44,622 nt of DNA, taken from contig JAJTWZ010000036.1 of assembly GCA_021463145.1 (NCBI GenBank), positions 1 to 44,622 on the forward strand, in the 5' to 3' direction. A model generated the notes under the pieces. It saw only the letters and a list, made by a program, of their open reading frames with translations. It did no database searches and was not told the origin of the DNA. The translations under genes were made by a program, and so were the position numbers. The DNA is from Blastocatellia bacterium (lineage in GTDB: Bacteria > Acidobacteriota > Blastocatellia > UBA7656 > JADIYM01). This document shows, one piece after another, positions 23,284 to 44,622 of this stretch; the first letter of the stretch is position 1, and every line of letters begins with the position of its first letter.

Positions 23284-23658
23284 TCATGGGTTTCGCCGGT
23301 GACGGAGTGAGGTGGACGGCAGGCGGAGAGCATGGTGACCCTGGCCATCGTCATCTCTCGGTGGGCCTGGGCAGGCCATTTCGTGAACGGGCGTAAGCCA
23401 CGCGGTGCGATGCTCGATCGGCTCGGGGTCGGAAGACTATTGGAGCCGCATTCTGTGGAGAACAGCAGCAATGGCGTGTGCTGACGTCTGCACTCCGCCC
23501 GTTTCATCCCAGAGGGTACGCCGCAAGCGTGCGGGGAACTATCGTGTTGGACCGCTTCGCGGTTCCACCTGAAGCGTCGGAGCGGTCGCACATCCACCCG
23601 ATCACACACTGCCCGGTGGGCCGTCGAACGCGACCTGGAACACGCGATCCGGAAGCCG
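23284..23658. other. Intergenic region without a recognised gene
   Basis: About 375 bases between the transglycosylase promoter and the end of bshC. Open frames of up to about 109 residues exist, but none has family motifs, a ribosome-binding site or a plausible composition. Near 23600-23665 one plus frame reads ARWAVERDLEHAIRK, which looks protein-like but ends in a stop soon after. It may be decayed coding sequence. No tRNA or known RNA motif is seen. Confidence 0.4.
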
Positions 23659-43402: not shown

Positions 43403-43999
43403 ATGAAGCGATTTGCCGTTCACGCCTGTGTCATTCTCGTCCTCGTTTCCATGTCTCTTTCCGCCCTGGCCTCGCCGCCGCCGGCGTCCACACGCGCTCG
43501 CTCGTGGGAACTCGGCGGAAAGCTGAGCCTTGCGGCGATCGCGCTCGCGAGCCCGGCGCTGCCTTCGACCGTCCAGAAGGTATTTGCCGGCGCGCGCGAT
43601 ATTGGCTCCGGACTTGGCGTGGATGTTCCGGCGCTGCCCGAACGGGAACTCGACCGGTCGCAAACACAGGGCCTGGTAATGAAGTACCTGCTCGCCGACG
43701 CGGGCGCTCCCATTGCCGGAAAGCTCGGCTCGACTTACGGTGGCGATCACGCCGCGCTCTTCGAAGTGGCGGTGAAGTCTACGTTGCTATTGCTCTTCTA
43801 TTCGCCCGGTGCCCCGGAGGGCGCCGAAGTCGTCACCGTGATCCGGAAACGCGCCGTCGATGCGCGATTGCCGGAAAGCCTCTGGCAGCCCTTGGTTGCG
43901 AAAATCGAGGCGAAGGCCTCTTATGACGACGTCAAGGCGGCAGTCACGGACCTGCACAACGCAGTACGGAAGCACCTGTCCGAAGAGCCGCCTCAGTAG
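43403..43999 (+). CDS. Exported protein of unknown function
   Basis: A 198-residue protein with a clean signal peptide (KRFAVHACVILVLVSMSLSA, cleavage after ALA). The mature part looks helical and contains a possible hydrophobic helix (AALFEVAVKSTLLLLFYSPG) and a C-terminal helix pair (KAAVTDLHNAVRKHLSEEP). No domain is recognised. The ATG at 43403 has GGAG 9 bases upstream; an ATG at 43388 would add five residues. It starts 55 bases after yigZ, with a TTGACA at 43367 that has no matching -10. It is the last ordinary gene before the repeat and intron region. Confidence 0.7.
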   Translation: MKRFAVHACVILVLVSMSLSALASPPPASTRARSWELGGKLSLAAIALASPALPSTVQKVFAGARDIGSGLGVDVPALPERELDRSQTQGLVMKYLLADAGAPIAGKLGSTYGGDHAALFEVAVKSTLLLLFYSPGAPEGAEVVTVIRKRAVDARLPESLWQPLVAKIEAKASYDDVKAAVTDLHNAVRKHLSEEPPQ

Positions 44000-44568
44000 C
44001 GCCGAAACATTCCTCGCTGACGTGCCGAACGATTGCCCGCCGTAGCGCCCGATGCCGGTCTGCTCCCGATCGTGAGCGGCCGGCGCAAGAGTGCGTCGTG
44101 GACTTCGATCGGCGTCATTCCTGGTGAACGAAACGCACGCCAGTCGCGGGTAATGGTCATCGCATCCGATTCGACGGGGGAAATTCGTTTGGTTCCTAAC
44201 AGTTCCCCACGCGCCTGCGGCGCGCCCCCTCGGACGAAACGCGCAGCGTTTCGGGTCCGCTGGCCATTCTTAAGCGCCGTAGCATTTCGGGTCCGCTGGC
44301 CATTCTGAAGCGCCGGGGCGTTTCGGGTCCGCTGGCCATTCTGAAGCGCTGTAGCGTTTCGGGTCCGCTGGCCATTCTTAAGCGCCGTAGCGTTTCGGGT
44401 CCGCTGGCCATTCTTAAGCGCCGCAGCGTTTCGAGTCCGCGGGCCATTCTGAAGCGCCGTAGCGTTTCGGGTCCGCGGGCCATTCTGAAGCGCCGTAGCG
44501 TTTCGGGTCCGCGGGCCATTCTTAAGCGCCGTAGGCGCGAAAGAGCCAATAGGGGTAGGGAGCGCCAC
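43993..44568 (-). CDS. Open frame across the repeat array encoding 12-residue repeats (doubtful gene)
   Basis: One minus frame stays open for 191 codons. It reads eight copies of a 12-residue unit of the form ALKNGPRTRNAT (K/Q, P/Q and T/A/P variants), then a non-repetitive tail ending RSARQRGMFRRY. Its only ATG (44568) lies inside intron domain VI, so if it is coding it would be the 3' part of a gene whose 5' exon lies beyond the intron. Because 36 is divisible by three, any frame open in one unit is open in all, so length is weak evidence. By eye, four of the eight distinct unit differences are silent in this frame, more than in the alternative minus frame. Confidence 0.2.
   Translation of the reverse strand: MALPTPIGSFAPTALKNGPRTRNATALQNGPRTRNATALQNGPRTRNAAALKNGQRTRNATALKNGQRTRNATALQNGQRTRNAPALQNGQRTRNATALKNGQRTRNAARFVRGGAPQARGELLGTKRISPVESDAMTITRDWRAFRSPGMTPIEVHDALLRRPLTIGSRPASGATAGNRSARQRGMFRRY
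44000..44242. other. Spacer between the exported protein gene and the repeat array
   Basis: No gene or RNA is recognised on either strand apart from the doubtful minus frame. Just before the array, CGAAACGC and GCGTTTCG (44235-44242 and 44246-44253) flank GCA. This forms a perfect 8-bp hairpin that uses the first array unit as one arm. Confidence 0.4.
44243..44530. repeat. Tandem array: eight 36-bp direct repeats
   Basis: Eight contiguous 36-base units (8 x 36 = 288), each built around GCGTTTCGGGTCCG and GGCCATTCTTAAGCGCC on the plus strand. The two central units (44351-44386 and 44387-44422) are identical. Units from 44423 rightward have CCGCGGGCC where the left ones have CCGCTGGCC, and TTAAG alternates with TGAAG. 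There are no spacers, so this is not CRISPR. The array ends 19 bases before the 3' end of the group II intron. Confidence 0.95.
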
Positions 44569-44622
44569 GGGGCGCCCCCTCCCTCCGAACCGGACTGGCG
44601 GATCTCCCGCATCCGGCTCTCC
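44549..44622 (-). ncRNA. 3' end of a group II intron (domains V and VI), intron body beyond right edge
   Basis: On the minus strand 44619-44587 forms a 33-base domain V. GAGCCGGA pairs with UCCGGUUC (with the conserved G-U), the AGC triad sits at positions 2-4, a two-base CA bulge follows, and the upper GCGG/CCGC stem is capped by GAGA(U). Next, 44583-44552 forms domain VI: GGGAGGGGGCGCC pairs with GGCGCUCCC-U-A-CCC, leaving one bulged A (44556). That A is the eighth base from the proposed 3' end CCCCUAU at 44549, the canonical branch-point distance. The ribozyme 5' part and any reverse transcriptase lie past the window. Confidence 0.85.

What the first reader, a model, noticed from the sequence alone, without database searches (positions are those of the whole stretch)
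44243..44530. Eight-copy 36-bp tandem array abutting the intron's 3' splice site
A 36-bp minisatellite with graded variants and two identical central units lies 19 bases from the intron end. If the intron splices, the array is in the 3' exon, and one frame encodes a basic 12-residue repeat (ALKNGPRTRNAT-like) continuing to a stop at 43993. The intron may have targeted the array, may interrupt a repeat protein, or the array may have grown after insertion. I know of no described element of this form.
Basis: partly seen in the sequence, partly recalled or inferred. Interest (0 to 1): 0.66.

Follow-up and report, generated by a model that had tools for sequence, protein, structure and literature searches.

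The report
Intron nested in BOX-like palindromic repeat
The eight-copy 36-base array is the variable middle part of a short non-coding repeat scattered some 40 times through this Acidobacteriota genome, and the neighbouring group II intron did not target the array but a hairpin beside it, where such introns repeatedly insert.

Summary
The array is real: 8.1 copies of 36 bp, 93% matches, window 44245-44534, starting 14 bases after the 3' end of a group II intron (domain 5/6 at 44549-44621, minus strand).

The 36-mer is not tied to introns. It occurs in about 42 arrays of 1-11 units in this genome, nearly all with a fixed plan: a palindromic left module (two types), n x 36 bp, a constant right module. 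This is the plan of pneumococcal BOX elements (A-Bn-C). Only 2 arrays carry an intron. The intron's other side, found on two other contigs, is the element's left hairpin, CCCACGGC-TTAC-GCCGTGGG-CTC|intron. Two further copies of the same intron have no array behind them. The target is therefore the hairpin.

Units show no codon-position signal and are more alike within arrays than between. The intron family is group IIC-like: 10 of 10 available 5' exons end in a hairpin 1-5 nt before the splice site.

Verdict: new variant of known kinds. The more interesting result is repeated group IIC insertion into the tag of REP-type palindromes.

The parts
44549..44622 (-). 3' end of a group II intron (domains 5 and 6), cut off by the contig end; last intron base is 44549
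   Evidence: RF00029, 50.8 bits; boundary set by comparison with intron-free copies
44526..44548 (-). 3' exon TGGCTC and second hairpin (GCGCC-TAC-GGCGC) of the type A left module; its right arm is the start of the first 36-mer
   Evidence: the two-hairpin module folds better than all 200 shuffles, z -3.85
44245..44534 (-). Array of eight 36-bp units, variable-number middle module of the dispersed element
   Evidence: TRF; 42 arrays genome-wide
44193..44242 (-). Right module with hairpin GCGCC-GCA-GGCGC, ending GTGGGGAACTG
   Evidence: same module starts 7 bases behind the last unit core in 38 of 48 listed places; match 44193-44282
43993..44568 (-).
   Evidence: no Pfam match; no codon-position signal; start codon lies in intron domain 6

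Best explanation
The array is the internal, variable-number part of a dispersed non-coding composite repeat. The element has, from left to right: a palindromic module (type A, two hairpins with a GTAG/AGAG-type tag; or type B, the palindromes that flank this genome's Y1 transposase genes), then 1-11 units of 36 bp, then a constant right module with one hairpin. Most likely the palindromic modules spread as REP-type sequences by a Y1 (HUH) transposase (inferred), and the 36-bp units gain and lose copies in place by slippage or unequal recombination (local similarity shown, mechanism inferred). A group IIC-like retrointron then inserted behind the first hairpin of the type A module, splitting GCCGTGGG-CTC|TGG (shown from both sides, on different contigs). 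The array is close to the splice site only because type A modules often have an array on their right.
For: Dispersed element with fixed plan. Only 2 of about 42 arrays have the intron; two of four intron copies of this type have no array. 5' exons on C4 and C42 end in the left hairpin plus CTC or CTT; joined exons equal the empty copies, 45 of 47 type A hairpins seen being empty. Hairpin directly before the splice site in 10 of 10 5' exons of the intron family. Protein of a complete relative nearest to group IIC enzymes. No coding signal. Units more alike within arrays, 0 of 1000 permutations. Y1 genes bracketed by type B palindromes, and by a type A-like module in G272.
Against: The 5' end and the 3' end of one and the same intron copy could not be linked in this assembly. 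The intron body and its protein are missing from the genome's contigs. Mobilisation of the modules by the Y1 proteins is not shown. The 36-mer array itself does not fold better than shuffles, so it is not a REP chain and its own role is unknown. Array sizes may be distorted by assembly.
Confidence: 0.85

Rival explanations
1. The type A hairpins are ordinary transcription terminators that happen to be repeated, and the intron is an ordinary terminator-inserting group IIC intron; Y1 transposases have nothing to do with the repeats.
For: Group IIC introns are known to insert behind terminators (PMC4424553). Other members of this intron family have unrelated hairpins as 5' exons.
Against: The target hairpin is a near-identical dispersed sequence (47 copies in the fetched regions) followed by a tag CTCT or CTAC, not by a run of T. 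A module of this kind brackets a Y1 gene in G272.
Confidence: 0.2
2. The array is coding: a 12-residue basic repeat protein interrupted by the intron.
For: The frame is open for 191 codons.
Against: Even codon-position differences and no excess of synonymous change; no Pfam match; a period of 36 keeps a frame open automatically; the 5' exon is a hairpin of a dispersed element.
Confidence: 0.02
3. The intron or its retromobility created or expands the arrays.
For: The window's array, next to an intron, is the second longest found.
Against: The longest (C101, 11 units) has an intact intron-free left module; the other array with an intron (C170) has one unit; most arrays have no intron.
Confidence: 0.04

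Closest known systems
BOX elements of Streptococcus pneumoniae and S. suis (PMC3049150)
   Same: Composite short interspersed repeat with end modules and a tandem, variable-number middle module; alternative end modules around the same middle unit (S. suis); middle unit contributes little to folding.
   Different: Unit is 36 bp and no sequence relation was tested; the left modules here are REP-type palindromes; an intron is nested in one module.
GTAG-tagged REPs, REP clusters and their Y1 transposases, RAYT/TIRYT (PMC3733652, PMC2817692)
   Same: Dispersed 20-nt hairpins with a GTAG or similar tag, in inverted pairs; palindromes bracket Y1 genes here and in a relative; Acidobacteria Y1 genes with terminal repeats are described.
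   Different: About as many type A copies carry the tag variant AGAG (CTCT) as GTAG (CTAC); they are linked to a 36-bp array and a right module; mobilisation not shown.
Group IIC (class C) introns inserting at terminators and attC sites (PMC4424553)
   Same: 5' exon is a stem-loop directly before the splice site; protein nearest to group IIC reverse transcriptases; short protein of about 407 aa in L166, ending soon after the maturase region.
   Different: Here the target is a dispersed REP-type palindrome, split within its tag. A thin precedent exists: 2 of 9 group II introns of P. putida KT2440 are listed as associated with REPs (table in PMC1525189).

Membership tests
BOX-type composite repeat | Two constant end modules around a tandem array of variable copy number, dispersed in one genome | tested here: met
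   42 arrays of 1-11 units, right module at a fixed distance, two left modules
BOX-type composite repeat | Sequence homology to pneumococcal boxA, boxB, boxC | not tested
   Resemblance is one of plan only; membership is not claimed
REP (GTAG superfamily) | Dispersed short hairpin with GTAG at its foot | tested here: inconclusive
   Of 47 type A hairpins, 17 have CTAC (GTAG) and 20 have CTCT (AGAG) on the tag side
REP with Y1 transposase (RAYT/TIRYT) | Y1 gene bracketed by the same palindromes in inverted orientation | tested here: met
   Type B: both Y1 genes, inverted arms 44-48 nt, 98% complementary. Type A: only in a relative, G272, arms 88 nt, 75% complementary
REP with Y1 transposase (RAYT/TIRYT) | Transposase binds or cuts the palindrome | not testable with these tools
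   Needs biochemistry
Group IIC intron | Stem-loop in the 5' exon immediately before the splice site | tested here: met
   10 of 10 five-prime exons; stems of 5-8 bp, 1-5 nt away; random positions reach 6 bp in about 2-6%
Group IIC intron | Class C intron-encoded protein without endonuclease domain | tested here: inconclusive
   L166 protein scores 219/210 bits with group IIC enzymes and 135 with LtrA, but no tree was built, and the window's own intron protein is not in the assembly
Group IIC intron | Ribozyme secondary structure of type IIC, EBS1/EBS3 pairings | not tested
   Only D5/D6 present in the window; Rfam D1-D4 models gave no match above threshold in five complete relatives

The most novel reading that the evidence does not exclude
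A widespread lineage of group IIC-like introns, seen in metagenome-assembled genomes of Acidobacteriota, Planctomycetes, Gemmatimonadetes and others, uses REP palindromes mobilised by Y1 transposases as a regular landing site and splits the REP tag (CTA|C, complement of GTAG). Two unrelated elements that act on single-stranded hairpins would then share one recognition site, a fourth target class beside homing sites, terminators and attC.
Probability: 0.35. Interest if true: 0.62.

Novelty: new variant of a known kind. Interest (0 to 1): 0.4.

Why it matters
It explains the array without a hidden protein. It gives a further case of the BOX plan, here apparently built on REP-type palindromes. 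It also makes a testable link between group IIC introns and REP palindromes: both are handled as single-stranded hairpins, and here they meet at the same few bases. The repeats also explain why many contigs of this and similar genomes break where they do.

Tried and rejected
Array as a chain of REP hairpins: folding no better than shuffles on either strand. 36-mer elsewhere: no exact-pattern match in the GTDB species genomes or in viral contigs; no array in 161 other genomes of the class. The only strong group II reverse transcriptase gene in the genome (C73) belongs to an intron with a different domain 5; C76 is a weaker match. A first search for the 5' splice site used a pattern with one base too many and found only chance hits; corrected. 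A family search limited to the family found only this genome. An NCBIfam call with wrong coordinates failed and was not repeated.

Full report
Observation. The array is real and far above chance: TRF score 489, 8.1 x 36 bp, 93% matches, 44245-44534. A group II intron 3' end lies at 44549-44621 on the minus strand, so the gap is 14 bases. The window is the complete contig C104 of a 173-contig, 5.28-Mb genome and stops inside the intron. A contig of G113, listed as same class, has the same length and intron as Blastocatellia record JACCVY010000062.1, so the host is probably a Blastocatellia (Acidobacteriota).

The 36-mer is dispersed. The 380-bp end of the window matches 46 places in the genome and a 139-bp intron-free version matches 108. 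Reading these regions shows one plan: left module, n units, right module. The right module begins 7 bases behind the last unit core in 38 of 48 listed places, some of the rest being chance single hits or contig ends; 42 arrays pass a similarity filter. n ranges from 1 to 11; the window's 8 is the second largest. Two left modules occur. Type A has hairpins CCCACGGC-TTAC-GCCGTGGG and GCGCC-TAC-GGCGC; type B has GACCGCTCCGCGGTC and CGCGCGACCCACGG. Outside this genome the 36-mer was not found: no exact-pattern hit in the GTDB species genomes or in viral contigs, and none in 161 other genomes of the class apart from a 30-base match to the hairpin part in G137. The type A hairpin module, in contrast, has relatives across the phylum.

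Not coding. In 73 units, differences from the consensus fall 40/52/41 on the three codon positions. The open frame follows from the period being a multiple of three, and its start codon lies in intron domain 6.

Local evolution. Units of one array are more alike (0.939) than units of different arrays (0.900; 0 of 1000 permutations). For example, A at position 21 occurs in five consecutive window units and 8 times in all. This fits slippage or unequal recombination in place and does not need the intron.

The intron and its target. Six D5/D6 copies exist, all at contig ends. Four are of the window's type; their 3' exons read TGGCTCTTTCGCGCC (C104, C170), TGGTGCTTTCGCGCC (C86) and TGGTGCATTCGCCCC (C130). 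Only C104 and C170 continue into 36-mers. The 5' side was found at the ends of C4 and C42: CCCACGGCTTACGCCGTGGG-CTC|GTGCGCGCACGAG and the same hairpin with CTT|GTGCGCG, followed in C4 by a start like that of the complete relatives (GAGAGGTGAAAGTCCTC). Joining 5' and 3' exons gives the sequence of the empty copies, GCCGTGGGCTCTGGTGCTTTCGCGCC; 45 of 47 type A hairpins in the fetched regions are empty. Which 5' end belongs to which 3' end cannot be decided here. A second intron type (C9, C55, and the 5' end on C160) sits in another dispersed palindrome, CGCCGCACTC|CAAGGCGC.

The intron family. A D5/D6 pattern hits 70 stretches in genomes of many phyla, mostly at contig ends. Complete introns encode a reverse transcriptase and start GTGCG. 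In 10 of 10 five-prime exons a stem of 5-8 bp ends 1-5 nt before the splice site; random positions reach 6 bp or more in about 2-6%. The weakest case, L169, has only 5 bp (reached by 7.9% of random positions). The L166 protein is nearest to group IIC reverse transcriptases, 219 and 210 bits against 135 for LtrA. L166, from a Thermoanaerobaculia genome, sits in a two-hairpin module of the same kind, CCTGGGGC-TGAC-GCCCCAGG-CTA|CTCAGATTTCGCCCC-TTC-GGGGC. Stem-loop targeting is a hallmark of group IIC introns, whose reviewed targets are terminators and attC sites (PMC4424553).

REP link. Both Y1_Tnp genes of this genome are bracketed by type B palindromes in inverted orientation (best arms 44 and 48 nt, 98% complementary). 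In front of the C119 gene a right module and the end of a 36-mer are fused to these palindromes. In G272 a type A-like module with GTAG tag brackets a Y1 gene. GTAG-tagged REPs, and Y1 genes with terminal repeats in Acidobacteria, are described (PMC3733652). On the strand of the intron the tag reads CTAC or CTCT, and the intron cuts it after the third base. Mobilisation by these enzymes is inferred, not shown.

Known relatives. The A-Bn-C plan equals that of BOX elements, including alternative end modules and a middle unit with little pairing (PMC3049150). Group II introns in REPs have a thin precedent, 2 of 9 copies in P. putida KT2440 (PMC1525189). Searches for a described group IIC-REP specificity found none in the held library, which lacks most subscription papers.

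Verdict. Observation confirmed. The array is a module of a non-coding BOX-like repeat, and its closeness to the intron is explained by a hairpin target next to it. New variant of known kinds; interest 0.4.

Noticed in passing
window 23497-23541: A lone copy of the right module (CCCGTTTCATCCCAGAGGGTACGCCGCAAGCGTGCGGGGAAC) without 36-mers, followed by a GACCGCTTCGCGGT palindrome like type B.
   Followed up: partly
L067 (G000:C73), 1-1600: A different group II intron with an intact reverse transcriptase frame (458 aa open frame), beside a gene on the other strand whose translation looks like an IS transposase.
   Followed up: no
L229 (G000:C160), 1-350; L071/L072 (C129); L010 (C55): A second dispersed palindrome family (GCGGCGCTTCACGCCGCACTCCAAGGCGC) that hosts a second group II intron type in the same way.
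   Followed up: partly
L146 (G149:C106) 1400-1700: A relative in the same class has the two-hairpin REP module itself repeated in tandem with a period of about 67-68 bp and no 36-mer.
   Followed up: no
L165, L180, L184, L189, L190, L216 (JACOSC genome): Many intron copies in one groundwater Acidobacteria genome share the 3' exon AAYTCAATCAGCC..GGCTGAGTAGTT, a hairpin too, so this host also seems to offer one repeated target.
   Followed up: no
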